Of a stretch of 61,837 bases of DNA, positions 55,396 to 58,882 are shown piece after piece. This DNA comes from Deltaproteobacteria bacterium (GTDB taxonomy: Bacteria > Desulfobacterota > Dissulfuribacteria > Dissulfuribacterales > JALVPX01). A program made the translations under genes and the position numbers. The stretch is taken from the NCBI GenBank assembly GCA_027023445.1, contig JALVVK010000015.1, positions 1 through 61,837 of the forward strand. Reading direction: 5' to 3'. The notes below the pieces were generated by a model that worked only from the letters and a program-made list of their open reading frames with translations, was not told the origin of the DNA and ran no database searches. The first letter of the stretch is position 1. Each line of letters begins with the position of its first letter.

Positions 55396-55593
55396 TCAGG
55401 GGAGGGACCTGATCTTCCAGTGGCCGGAAATCCAGATGCCCTTCCAGTTATAATGACCTGGAATCCATATCCTGGCATATCCGTACCTGCATCTGTGGGC
55501 CCTGATCCGGCGAGGCTGAGACACTATCACGGTGCATGCCTGAAAAGCCAGGGTGAGACATAAAAGCGCCATGATTAAAACGGATTTTTTCAC
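55396..55593 (-). CDS. small lipoprotein with WXXGXW-type repeats
   Basis: A 65-residue protein. A signal sequence KKSVLIMALLCLTLAFQACT ends in a probable lipobox Cys. The mature part has two tandem units, ARIWIPGHYNWKG and IWISGHWK, typical of the WXXGXW repeat family of cell-envelope proteins with unknown function. I start it at GTG 55593, seven bases after AGGAGGT, and drop the 25 extra residues of the track. Single gene convergent with aroB. Confidence 0.78.
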   Translation of the reverse strand: MKKSVLIMALLCLTLAFQACTVIVSQPRRIRAHRCRYGYARIWIPGHYNWKGIWISGHWKIRSLP

Positions 55594-56100
55594 AATAGTT
55601 ACCTCCTGTTGAGCCTTTTTATGAGGCCTTGGCCGACAGGCACGTCCACCTGCCGGGAAGGCATTCACAGGGTCTGTGTCTTTTATCTGTTACTTTTGAT
55701 TCCATCCCTTTTCATCCCTTGGTTTGTCATCATGTCGTGTAAGATCCGGCATTTTTATTATTTAGCTGATTATTTCATTATGCCATATAGTGTCGCGTCC
55801 GGACATGAAAGACTTGTTCGGTAAATTATACGGAAATAACGAGTGTGGATGCGTATGCAGGATTATAATTAACATCCCATAATTTTTCTATCTGGCAGGG
55901 CGGATAAAGGGAAAATTTCCTTATTGACAGGAAGTTTTTTCTGTATAAAATCTTTTTATGTGTCTTTTATGTCTTTCTGACATCTCCTGTTTGTCAAAGG
56001 CCTCCGCCTTTTTGTGGATTACAGGTCTGGTGGCGCTTTGTGATTTTCCGGAGTTTTTTATGCCTGAGTTTTTCCCCTACCGCTTCAAGGAGGCCTCTAA
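55594..56100. other. leader region of the DUF2589 cluster
   Basis: No credible ORF. It carries the promoter listed next and, in the 5' leader, a short hairpin AAAGGC-CTCC-GCCTTT followed by TT (55996-56013), which could act as an attenuator. The left part holds the lipoprotein gene's own upstream region. Confidence 0.5.
55924..55951 (+). promoter_or_regulatory. sigma70-type promoter of the DUF2589 cluster
   Basis: Perfect TTGACA (55924-55929), 16-base spacer, TAAAAT (55946-55951; five of six match the consensus). About 150 bases before the first gene. The best promoter match in the window. Confidence 0.7.
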
Positions 56101-56628
56101 ATGGCAGACCAGGTATCCCTTGACAACCTGATCGAAGGACTTGCCGGTGCTGTGGTAGAGGCTCAGCGCCGTATCGAATCCCGTCAGATCGAGAATCTGC
56201 AAGGTTTTTTTGATAAACATAACCGGCCCAGGGCCATTAATATAAGAGTGCCGTCTCTTGATCCCAACGCAAAGCCGGGACAGGATGATATCTACAGGGT
56301 TCCTCTCCTGCCGCTTGTCGCAAGCAGCCTGCTGAAAATTAAAGAGGTGGAGATCAGCTTTGATGCGGATCTCCTGAGCCTGGAAGATGAAGAAAAGGAG
56401 AAAGTAAGGGAGGCGGAAAACGTGGAGGATGAGTCAGAGGGCACAGCCCATAGGGGGGTGGGGAAAAAGAGGTCCATCAACGTGGATGTGCGTGGAGGAA
56501 TGTTTAGGCGAAAGGCCGGGGGGGTTCATGTGGTTCTTAAGGTGGAGGGAAGGGAGCCCTCCGAGGGTATGGCCCGGCTTATTGACCGGCTTATACAGTC
56601 CCAGGGTGTAGTAAAAATACCGGAATAA
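56101..56628 (+). CDS. DUF2589-like protein 1
   Basis: A 175-residue protein. A helical start SLDNLIEGLAGAVVEAQRRI (about 5-25) is followed by PLLPLVASSLLKIKEVEISFDADL (in pieces), a Lys/Glu-rich acidic loop, and a C-terminal VVLKVEGREPSEGMARLIDRL. This order matches DUF2589 proteins as I know them; their function is unknown. No signal or membrane segment, so probably cytosolic. AAGGAGG lies at good distance from the ATG. First gene behind a strong promoter. The two related genes downstream point to a multi-subunit assembly, which is inference. Confidence 0.78.
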   Translation: MADQVSLDNLIEGLAGAVVEAQRRIESRQIENLQGFFDKHNRPRAINIRVPSLDPNAKPGQDDIYRVPLLPLVASSLLKIKEVEISFDADLLSLEDEEKEKVREAENVEDESEGTAHRGVGKKRSINVDVRGGMFRRKAGGVHVVLKVEGREPSEGMARLIDRLIQSQGVVKIPE

Positions 56629-56690
56629 ATATGTGGTCAGGTATATGAAAAGCGTCGGACAAGAACATTTAAAGGAAGGAGGAAAACAGC

Positions 56691-57386
56691 ATGGCAAATG
56701 AATTAGTCAACATGTCGGATCAATTCCAGGGGCTTCCCATGGACAGCCTGATAGGAGGGCCTCTGGCCGCGGCCTGCGAGGCTCAGTTGAAACTGGCCAA
56801 TGCTACCGCGGATTTTATCAGGGTGGTTGGTTTCCTGCCTCCTGAAAAACCGGATCCCAACGACCCGAATGCCGTGGGAGACACGAGAACCGCGACTTTC
56901 AGGTTCAAGCGTCCTGTTGAGGTGCCGGCACCTCCGGGCGCGGATCTGACCGCGGGTGAACTGCCCGTGCCGACCATACACGAAGAAAAAGTGGAAATGG
57001 AGGTGCCCCTGCTGGCCATTGTAAAGGTGCCTGCCCTGAGCATCACATCGGTTGATATCACCTTTGACATGGAGGTTAAATCCTCGTTTTCCACATCCAC
57101 AAAGATTGCGGCAGAGGCCTCCATGAAGGGGGGGATTACCGCGGGCTACCCGCCGTTCATAAGCGCTCATGTCAGCATCCAGGGATCAGTGTCAACTCAT
57201 AAGGAAAATACTCGTTCATCAGACAATTCGGCTAAATATCACGTGGAGGTACATGCCGAGGATTCAGGAATGCCCGAGGGTCTGGCCAGGGTGATGGATA
57301 TCCTTCAGACTGCTATAGCCCCCAAGAATATCGAACGTCAGGGGAGTAAATCTAACCCGTCGCCCGCTGCCCCAACTTCTCCCTGA
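56691..57386 (+). CDS. DUF2589-like protein 2
   Basis: A 231-residue paralogue with the same order: PMDSLIGGPLAAACEAQLKL at the start, VPLLAIVKVPALSITSVDITF in the core, and HAEDSGMPEGLARVMDILQT near the end. It differs by a Pro-rich segment about 60-90 (EKPDPNDPN, VPAPPGADL) and a Ser/Thr-rich beta-type stretch (SSFSTSTKIAAEAS, QGSVSTHKENTRSS). It has a Pro/Ser tail. Strong GGAAGGAGG ribosome site, so it is probably abundant. No Cys-rich motif, no signal. Function unknown. Confidence 0.78.
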   Translation: MANELVNMSDQFQGLPMDSLIGGPLAAACEAQLKLANATADFIRVVGFLPPEKPDPNDPNAVGDTRTATFRFKRPVEVPAPPGADLTAGELPVPTIHEEKVEMEVPLLAIVKVPALSITSVDITFDMEVKSSFSTSTKIAAEASMKGGITAGYPPFISAHVSIQGSVSTHKENTRSSDNSAKYHVEVHAEDSGMPEGLARVMDILQTAIAPKNIERQGSKSNPSPAAPTSP

Positions 57387-57400
57387 GGGGGATAAGGGTG

Positions 57401-57490
57401 ATGGATAAAGCAAAGGAACAGGCGCTCGCCTCCCTTGCGTACCATTTAGATATAGTCCGAACATGGCAGGGAACGGACGTTCATGTTTGA
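57401..57490 (+). CDS. 29-residue ORF coupled to the next gene
   Basis: ATG 57401 follows GGGGATAAGGG, 14 bases after the previous stop, and gives MDKAKEQALASLAYHLDIVR plus nine residues ending at TGA 57490. Its stop overlaps the ATG of the 84-residue ORF (ATGTTTGA). Either a tiny protein, a leader peptide for coupled translation, or the first exon-like part of a frameshifted gene. Too short for the ORF track. Confidence 0.5.
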   Translation: MDKAKEQALASLAYHLDIVRTWQGTDVHV

Positions 57491-57737
57491 TCTGACAGAT
57501 ATTCGCTTTGTGAAGCGTATTTCCGTGGGCACAAGCAATCCTGCGCGCGTACTCACGGAAGAGGAGATCCAGAGCGCGGTGAACCTTCTAAACCGATGTC
57601 TGTCAGGTACCCCTAGGGGCACGATCATCGGTATTGAAAAGAGCTTCAGGGTGTTGAACATAGGCGAGCACCAGGCTGTTCTGCAATGGATTGTCTATCA
57701 TGTTGGATTTCCAAGAAAACCCGCATGGCTTGATTGA
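57483..57737 (+). CDS. 84-residue protein of the DUF2589 cluster
   Basis: A small soluble protein: MFDLTDIRFVKRISVG, a helical LTEEEIQSAVNLLNRCLSG, then TIIGIEKSFRVLNIGEHQAV and a C-terminal VYHVGFPRKPAWLD. No family recognised. It has no ribosome site of its own, so it is probably translated by coupling from the 29-residue ORF, with which it overlaps by eight bases. The conserved-looking core and lack of stops argue that it is real. Position suggests a role with the DUF2589-like proteins. Confidence 0.65.
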   Translation: MFDLTDIRFVKRISVGTSNPARVLTEEEIQSAVNLLNRCLSGTPRGTIIGIEKSFRVLNIGEHQAVLQWIVYHVGFPRKPAWLD

Positions 57738-57782
57738 CATATTCCGCTTTTGATGGCTTTGAATTTGAATTGTTCATCAAGC

Positions 57783-57865
57783 AATGTTGTTTAAGGGTCG
57801 AGGTGTTTGAGATTCATAACCTTTTTCCAGGCATTTTAAGCGCATTATCCTGGATAATTAGGGTT
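57783..57865 (+). repeat. decayed repeat B copy
   Basis: CAGGCATTTTAAGCGCATTATCCTGG (in pieces) resembles the right end of copy 2 (CAGGCATTTGAAGTGCATAA). Lies inside the DUF2589 cluster, between the 84-residue gene and the third paralogue. Confidence 0.45.
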
Positions 57866-57918
57866 AAATAAATAATCAGGGTAAATCCCTGCCTGTATGC
57901 CAGAGGGGGCGTGTTGGC

Positions 57919-58551
57919 ATGAACATAAAAGGAGAGACGGAAGGCCTTGATTTAGATAGCCTTACAGATACGCTGCGCAACGCATTATCCGGTGCGAACC
58001 GTACTCTTCTGGCAGACCAGGAATCCGCCTTGCGGCGAATAATTGACGTAGGTGAAGACGGTGAGCCTGAATATATTACATGGCTCTGTTCCGTTGCCTC
58101 GCGGGACGGGCAAGACCAAAATTACGAAATGTTGCGCATGCCCATATCCGCCCTCAGAAGTGGAGACGTCATGGGCATTTCGGAACTATCTGTGGAGGTT
58201 GACTGCGTAACGGAGCACCCCCGTCAGGAAGAAGAAAAAGGCCTGGTCGAGCCATCCAGGTTGATACCTCTTTTAACAGGGAAGAAACGGCGTGGGGCGG
58301 CCGTGCGACATGTGAAAATTGCCCTTAAGGGCCCGGATGGAGCCGAGGGGAGTATTCGGATTGAAGAAGATTATCCCAAACCAGGGATTTTGTCTGTTTC
58401 AGAAGGTGATGAAGGACAAAACAGAGTCGGGGAGGAGCAATATGGATTTTTCAAGGGACAGTTACTGCCGTATTTTTGTCATCTGTATCATGTGGTTATT
58501 TCTTTCCTCCGCAGGCTTATGCGTTGCAGGGACCGCCCGCTGCGACCTTAA
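57919..58551 (+). CDS. DUF2589-like protein 3, diverged
   Basis: A 210-residue protein with weaker but consistent similarity to the other two: LDLDSLTDTLRNALSGANRT at the start, LRMPISALRSGDVMGISELSV in the core, HVKIALKGPDGAEGSIRIEED near the expected end. After that comes a tail of about 55 residues (ending FLRRLMRCRDRPLRP) whose last 36 codons overlap the next gene in another frame. The tail may be the result of a lost stop or frameshift. GAGGGGG lies upstream. A repeat B remnant separates it from the upstream genes. Confidence 0.65.
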   Translation: MNIKGETEGLDLDSLTDTLRNALSGANRTLLADQESALRRIIDVGEDGEPEYITWLCSVASRDGQDQNYEMLRMPISALRSGDVMGISELSVEVDCVTEHPRQEEEKGLVEPSRLIPLLTGKKRRGAAVRHVKIALKGPDGAEGSIRIEEDYPKPGILSVSEGDEGQNRVGEEQYGFFKGQLLPYFCHLYHVVISFLRRLMRCRDRPLRP

Positions 58552-58882
58552 ATCGGCAAACCTTGCCGGCAACTGGAAGGGCGTTTTGATTGAATCCGGC
58601 GGAGACCGTATTCCAGTTGATCTGCATGTGACCACGGAAAGAGATGAACCTGGATGCGAGCTGGATTATGGTCCTGATCGCAACTGTTCCCTGGAAGCAG
58701 TGGGTGCCGGTTCCGACGAGAAGACCTTCTACTTCAGGTTCAAGGACAGCGACGGCGGATGGTGTGACCGTTTGATAAACGGAAAGATGTCTCTTGAGAT
58801 AAAAGACCGCAATACCCTGGATCTTGATGTGCAAAACGCCAGTGGGTCGGTCAACGAATCCGTTGAGCTGAAAAGAAAATGA
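58442..58882 (+). CDS. exported protein of the DUF2589 cluster
   Basis: A 146-residue protein. MDFSRDSYCRIFVICIMWLF followed by LSSAGLCVAGTA is a signal peptide, so the mature part is periplasmic. It begins ARCDLKSANLAGNWKGVLIE and contains Cys at CDLK, GCELDYG, NCSLEA and WCDRL, which could form two disulfides. Beta-rich, lipocalin-like spacing is possible but not shown. GGGGAGGAG stands six bases before the ATG. It overlaps the third DUF2589-like gene by 110 bases. No family recognised. Confidence 0.7.
   Translation: MDFSRDSYCRIFVICIMWLFLSSAGLCVAGTARCDLKSANLAGNWKGVLIESGGDRIPVDLHVTTERDEPGCELDYGPDRNCSLEAVGAGSDEKTFYFRFKDSDGGWCDRLINGKMSLEIKDRNTLDLDVQNASGSVNESVELKRK

What the first reader, a model, noticed from the sequence alone, without database searches (positions are those of the whole stretch)
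56101..58882. Compact cluster of three DUF2589-like paralogues with two tiny ORFs and an exported protein
Seen: three proteins of 175, 231 and 210 residues share the order helical start (LDxLI), hydrophobic VPLLxLV core with IxxVxISF, and a C-terminal PEGMARLxD-like block, yet differ strongly in sequence. They alternate with a 29- and an 84-residue ORF and end with a signal-peptide protein with several Cys. A near-consensus promoter sits upstream, and gene 2 has a very strong ribosome site. Known: DUF2589 has no assigned function to my knowledge. Inference: diverged paralogues in one operon often form hetero-oligomeric assemblies, and here a secreted partner is included. This is the best candidate for an undescribed system in the window.
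Basis: partly seen in the sequence, partly recalled or inferred. Interest (0 to 1): 0.75.

Follow-up and report, generated by a model that had tools for sequence, protein, structure and literature searches.

The report
DUF2589 operon tied to wall-cutting enzymes
This is a real, widely shared set of bacterial genes with no known function; in most relatives it sits beside an interchangeable enzyme that cuts the cell wall, which suggests an undescribed machine for letting such enzymes, and perhaps other cell contents, out of the cell.

Summary
The cluster is real and is a functional unit. A (56101-56628) and B (56691-57386) are DUF2589 proteins. D (57919-58551) is a diverged relative, visible only by profile comparison. 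C (84 aa) recurs next to B in 84 of 86 DUF2589-B loci. The exported protein E recurs in 36 of 86, behind D. The 29-residue ORF is not conserved and is probably not a gene.

I found 56 within 3 kb of the core and none in 0.93 Mb of more distant flanks. The enzyme belongs to unrelated families: GH19, GH24, GH25, GH108, PF11860, Amidase_2 and Amidase_3. The type changes at least nine times on the B tree. Most lack a signal peptide. Many loci also encode a small one-pass membrane protein between D and E.

The window copy is reduced: it has no adjacent hydrolase, and D has no membrane anchor.

Best guess: an envelope-crossing or lysis module that works like a holin-endolysin cassette but is built from other parts. 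The linkage is shown; the mechanism is inferred (confidence about 0.4). Open-access literature holds one passing mention of DUF2589.

The parts
55924..55951 (+). sigma-70-like promoter TTGACA-16-TAAAAT
   Evidence: 11 of 12 consensus; pattern match only
56101..56628 (+). A: short DUF2589 protein, 175 aa, cytosolic
   Evidence: PF11655 E 3.9e-29; A homologues in nearly all B loci
56691..57386 (+). B: long DUF2589 protein, 231 aa, cytosolic
   Evidence: PF11655 E 1.3e-44; 189 relatives in genome collection; AlphaFold model pLDDT 67.7
57099..57218 (+). B residues 137-176: amphipathic S/A/G/T-rich segment with an aromatic turn, possible membrane-insertion or oligomerisation hairpin
   Evidence: beta alternation z 3.0 and 3.9; disordered in the single-chain model between two long strands
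57401..57490 (+). 29-residue ORF, probably not a gene
   Evidence: no match in any other fetched locus
57483..57737 (+). C: 84-aa conserved cytosolic protein
   Evidence: in 84 of 86 B loci; 38-73% identity to the window copy; no Pfam, NCBIfam, PHROGs or PADLOC family
57919..58551 (+). D: diverged DUF2589-like protein; window copy lacks the C-terminal membrane helix of its relatives
   Evidence: hhalign to A 98.6%, E 9e-16; alignment; TM scan
58442..58882 (+). E: exported 146-aa protein, signal peptide plus eight-stranded barrel with conserved C82/C108
   Evidence: family in 36 of 86 loci; AlphaFold barrel pLDDT mostly above 90; calycin/lipocalin-like matches

Best explanation
A-B-C-D(-F)-E is one conserved envelope module whose job is to bring a signal-less, endolysin-type peptidoglycan hydrolase, and possibly other cytosolic cargo, across the inner membrane. 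It would work like a holin-endolysin cassette but be built from DUF2589 proteins. Proposed steps: A, B and D form a soluble hetero-oligomer with C. B, or the complex, engages the membrane through B's amphipathic hairpin and the small membrane protein F (or D's tail helix). The hydrolase reaches the wall. The periplasmic barrel E acts on the far side, as a guard, ligand sensor or wall-side partner. Shown: operon conservation, interchangeable hydrolase, absence of export signals on most hydrolases, membrane helix between D and E in many relatives, predicted exported barrel. Inferred: complex formation, membrane insertion, release, and E's role. The window copy is a reduced version without a local hydrolase.
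For: A, B and C co-occur in nearly all of 86 loci. There are 56 hydrolases within 3 kb of the core against 0 in 925 kb of distal flank (p 1e-26, not corrected for shared ancestry). GH108 ends a median 5 bp from A. Unrelated families fill the slot: GH108, GH19, PF11860, GH25, GH24 and Amidase_2, Amidase_3. At least 9 changes of enzyme type on the B tree; the window's starred four-member clade holds one GH24 and one GH108 locus. More distant DUF2589 loci also carry GH24-like and muramidase-like genes (by sequence motif). GH108, GH19 and PF11860 enzymes lack signal peptides. A one-pass membrane segment lies between D and E in 29 of 36 E loci (my count). An LprI lysozyme-inhibitor family protein lies between E and GH108 in one relative. 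LuxR, AraC and OmpR-type regulators lie nearby, as regulators do at type 10 systems (PMC10847048).
Against: The window has no hydrolase beside the cluster, and its genome gave no GH108 or GH24 hit (the GH108 control did not ring). No canonical holin or spanin was seen. Phage contigs carry A+B without any of the four hydrolase families I could test. Archaeoglobus has DUF2589 genes (PMC3949148) and, from general knowledge, no peptidoglycan. Some Bacteroidota loci have proteases instead. The GH25 enzymes carry their own N-terminal membrane or signal segment. B's fold matched no solved structure, so pore formation is a guess.
Confidence: 0.4

Rival explanations
1. Outward weapon: A-D assemble a carrier for a wall-degrading effector aimed at other bacteria, with E (or LprI) as self-protection.
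For: Variable effector slot beside a constant chassis; LprI-family protein next to GH108 in L032; proteases and patatin in some loci.
Against: No known delivery machine among recurrent neighbours; E is found with GH108, GH19 and GH24 alike, so it is not enzyme-specific; E is absent from the GH19 loci in Burkholderiales.
Confidence: 0.2
2. Regulated self-killing or anti-phage defence: a pore-former plus a death enzyme, by analogy with gasdermin-protease pairs (analogy from general knowledge).
For: Degradative enzymes in the slot, including S8 and trypsin-like proteases and patatin; patchy distribution (6 of 297 genomes in the phylum).
Against: No PADLOC family matches; no consistent sensor gene or defence-island neighbours seen; phage contigs carry A+B themselves.
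Confidence: 0.15
3. Envelope scaffold: A-D build a permanent envelope structure and the hydrolase only makes room in the wall.
For: Paralogue set suggests a hetero-oligomer; components predicted in cytosol, membrane and periplasm.
Against: Such hydrolases are normally exported by signal peptide (general knowledge), whereas most here have none.
Confidence: 0.15
4. The window copy is a decaying remnant of a horizontally acquired operon (compatible with any function of the intact system).
For: No DUF2589 in 40 genomes related at family or order level; no hydrolase; D lacks its membrane tail and overruns E.
Against: A, B, C and E are intact, with conserved residues, a promoter match and a strong ribosome site.
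Confidence: 0.2

Closest known systems
DUF2589 (Pfam PF11655)
   Same: A and B pass the family cut-off; D is related by profile
   Different: The family has no assigned function; the constant partners C, D, E and the hydrolase slot are not part of its description
Type 10 secretion system / phage lysis cassette (holin, endolysin, spanins)
   Same: Endolysin-like hydrolase without signal peptide in the same operon of many relatives, a membrane protein, an exported protein, nearby regulators
   Different: No recognised holin or spanin; core is soluble DUF2589 proteins; window copy lacks the hydrolase
Bacterial gasdermin-protease pairs
   Same: Proteases sit beside DUF2589 in some Bacteroidota
   Different: No sequence or fold similarity found; most loci have wall hydrolases, not proteases
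Lysozyme inhibitors (LprI, MliC)
   Same: E is an exported small barrel; an LprI-family protein (PF07007) lies beside GH108 in L032
   Different: E matches no inhibitor family; fold matches are generic calycin-like or designed barrels

Membership tests
DUF2589 (PF11655) | profile match above the Pfam cut-off of 23 bits (A and B) | tested here: met
   A 102.4 and B 152.7 bits
DUF2589 (PF11655) | D above the same cut-off | tested here: not met
   no Pfam match; related only by profile-profile comparison to A, weakly to B (12.8%)
Type 10 secretion system / lysis cassette | holin | tested here: inconclusive
   no holin family match among the proteins scanned; a one-pass membrane protein F, or D tail helix, in 29 of 36 E loci, absent from the window
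Type 10 secretion system / lysis cassette | endolysin-type hydrolase in the operon | tested here: not met
   not met in the window; met in most relatives
Type 10 secretion system / lysis cassette | i-spanin/o-spanin pair | tested here: not met
   E is a soluble barrel with no lipobox seen by eye; no spanin pair seen among recurrent neighbours
Type 10 secretion system / lysis cassette | release of cytosolic cargo | not testable with these tools
   needs experiment
Bacterial gasdermin | gasdermin fold or sequence | tested here: not met
   no Pfam match other than DUF2589; no significant fold match in the PDB (the model is only moderate)
Known anti-phage defence system | match to PADLOC-DB models | tested here: not met
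   no credible match (one chance-level Cas8a hit, 13 bits)
Lysozyme inhibitor families | E matches an inhibitor family | tested here: not met
   none among 27 family members

The most novel reading that the evidence does not exclude
DUF2589 B is a soluble protein that inserts a beta-hairpin pore from the cytosol, replacing the holin in a previously unknown class of lysis or secretion system. The class is spread across several bacterial phyla and also occurs on phage contigs, with swappable wall-cutting enzymes and a periplasmic barrel partner.
Probability: 0.25. Interest if true: 0.9.

Novelty: categorically new. Interest (0 to 1): 0.7.

Why it matters
DUF2589 has been an orphan family. A constant core of DUF2589 proteins plus C, with repeatedly swapped wall hydrolases, makes its function testable. 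If the mechanism holds, it adds a non-holin route by which cytosolic proteins reach the cell wall, relevant to how bacteria release large proteins, die on purpose or compete.

Tried and rejected
Fold search of B: no PDB match below E 2; one viral match of unknown function (E 8.7e-8). A chance-level hit to a Microcystis extracellular tube was checked only through a profile search of the PDB, which found nothing, and a paper search. NCBIfam, PHROGs and PADLOC gave nothing useful for A-E. The 29-residue ORF was tested and dropped. E as a lysozyme inhibitor was tested by family and fold and not supported. Three genome searches failed because 'of' needs a genome handle.

Full report
WHAT IS THERE. 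The window carries five genes on the + strand: A (56101-56628), B (56691-57386), C (57483-57737), D (57919-58551) and E (58442-58882). A and B match Pfam DUF2589 well above its cut-off. D has no match alone, but its family aligns with the A family (hhalign 98.6%, E 9e-16); A and B are likewise related (97.6%, E 3e-12), while B and D are only weakly so. D lacks the PEGMARL block. A promoter-like site lies at 55924. The 29-residue ORF has no counterpart elsewhere.

DISTRIBUTION. DUF2589 is patchy. I found it in 6 of 297 genomes of the window's phylum (the window's own genome is one of the six), in none of 40 relatives in its family and order, in 2 of 300, 19 of 297 and 9 of 399 genomes drawn from the phyla of an Eubacterium, a Cyclobacterium and a Luteibacter genome, and in none of 14 control genomes. 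This fits horizontal spread. In 12 genomes checked whole, DUF2589 hits always formed A/B pairs at one place, adjacent or about 1 kb apart.

THE UNIT RECURS. In 86 loci with B (80 from a genome scan, plus plasmid, viral-collection and phylum loci and the window), C is present in 84, A in nearly all, and E in 36, behind D. The 80 scan loci were the closest of 189 relatives and include near-duplicates (for example L016 and L048), so these counts describe the close family. In L017, from another family of the same phylum, all five genes recur in the order B-C-D-E-A.

THE MISSING PARTNER. Most relatives carry a peptidoglycan hydrolase in or beside the operon. Four families (GH108, GH19, PF11860, GH25) give 56 hits within 3 kb of the core and none in 925,340 bases of distal flank (binomial p 1e-26). 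The p value ignores shared ancestry, so I also mapped enzyme type on a B tree: at least nine changes among 61 labelled rows, and the window's starred clade of four holds one GH24 locus, one GH108 locus and two without a label. GH24, Amidase_2 and Amidase_3 extend the list. Among seven newly sampled Pseudomonadota genomes not taken from the B scan, four have an adjacent hydrolase. More distant DUF2589 loci in a Burkholderia plasmid and a faecal phage-collection scaffold also sit beside a GH24-like and a muramidase-like gene (by sequence motif). The Bacteroidota loci, which mostly have another partner set, show CHAP, M15 peptidase, S8, trypsin-like and patatin neighbours in some cases and nothing obvious in others.

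TOPOLOGY. GH108, GH19 and PF11860 enzymes begin without a signal peptide, like endolysins; GH25 has a hydrophobic N-terminus. Between D and E, 29 of 36 E loci encode a short protein with one C-terminal membrane helix, or D itself ends in one (my count). The window's D does not, and it reads 110 nt into E. E is predicted as a signal peptide plus an eight-stranded barrel with one conserved cysteine pair; its fold matches are calycin-like and designed barrels, not a particular function.

STRUCTURE OF B. The model is moderate (pLDDT 67.7): a long helix, a sheet, a C-terminal helix, and a disordered stretch 137-176 between two long strands. Across 77 homologues that stretch alternates polar and hydrophobic residues (z 3.0 and 3.9 in the best windows) around an aromatic turn. 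This suits a membrane-insertion hairpin, but also an ordinary oligomerisation arm. No solved structure resembles B by sequence or fold.

PHAGES. Two viral contigs carry A+B next to glycosyltransferase-like genes and, in one case scanned, UvsX and DnaB genes; a 194-kb contig carries A, B and C. No GH108, GH19, PF11860 or GH25 enzyme was found in the stretches I read. The viral-collection contig L016 appears to be a chromosomal locus like L048.

MECHANISM. The best reading is an envelope-crossing or lysis module working like a holin-endolysin cassette. Type 10 systems have holin, endolysin and spanins with nearby transcription factors (PMC10847048); here the hydrolase and regulators are found in relatives, but no holin or spanin was recognised. 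I therefore claim 'works like', not 'is a'. Rivals are an outward weapon, programmed death or defence, a static envelope scaffold, and, for this copy, decay.

LITERATURE. Only one held paper mentions DUF2589, in passing, for Archaeoglobus AF0414-AF0417 (PMC3949148); none mentions PF11655. The library covers open-access papers only, so the novelty call is limited by that.

Noticed in passing
L032:3439-3843: LprI lysozyme-inhibitor family protein (PF07007, E 4.5e-23) between E and GH108.
   Followed up: partly
L177, L178, L180, L183, L185: Bacteroidota DUF2589 loci have S8 subtilase (read from sequence in L177, Pfam in L185), trypsin-like protease, patatin plus M15 peptidase, or CHAP neighbours.
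   Followed up: partly
L019, L172, L175, L179-L185: A second DUF2589 subtype lacks C and instead has partners of about 226 aa ('LGDYIG' start) and 190 aa; the L019 copies have no Pfam match.
   Followed up: no
L012, L086, L089, L085, L087, L090, L092-L094: MscS-type mechanosensitive channel genes near the cluster in Vibrio and Cyclobacterium.
   Followed up: no
L102, L103, L105: Phage contigs carrying A+B (L105 also C); L102 has two lipoprotein-like genes just upstream of B.
   Followed up: partly
L074:4299-5408, L075:11176-12348: Sphingomonas loci have a metalloprotease-like gene (weak M12/astacin matches) where others have a hydrolase.
   Followed up: no
L059:11423-12628 and six other loci: A protein family of about 401 aa without Pfam match recurs near the cluster in seven loci.
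   Followed up: no
window 55396-55668 (-): Small lipoprotein-like ORF with WxxGHW-type repeats; WXXGXW match below cut-off.
   Followed up: no
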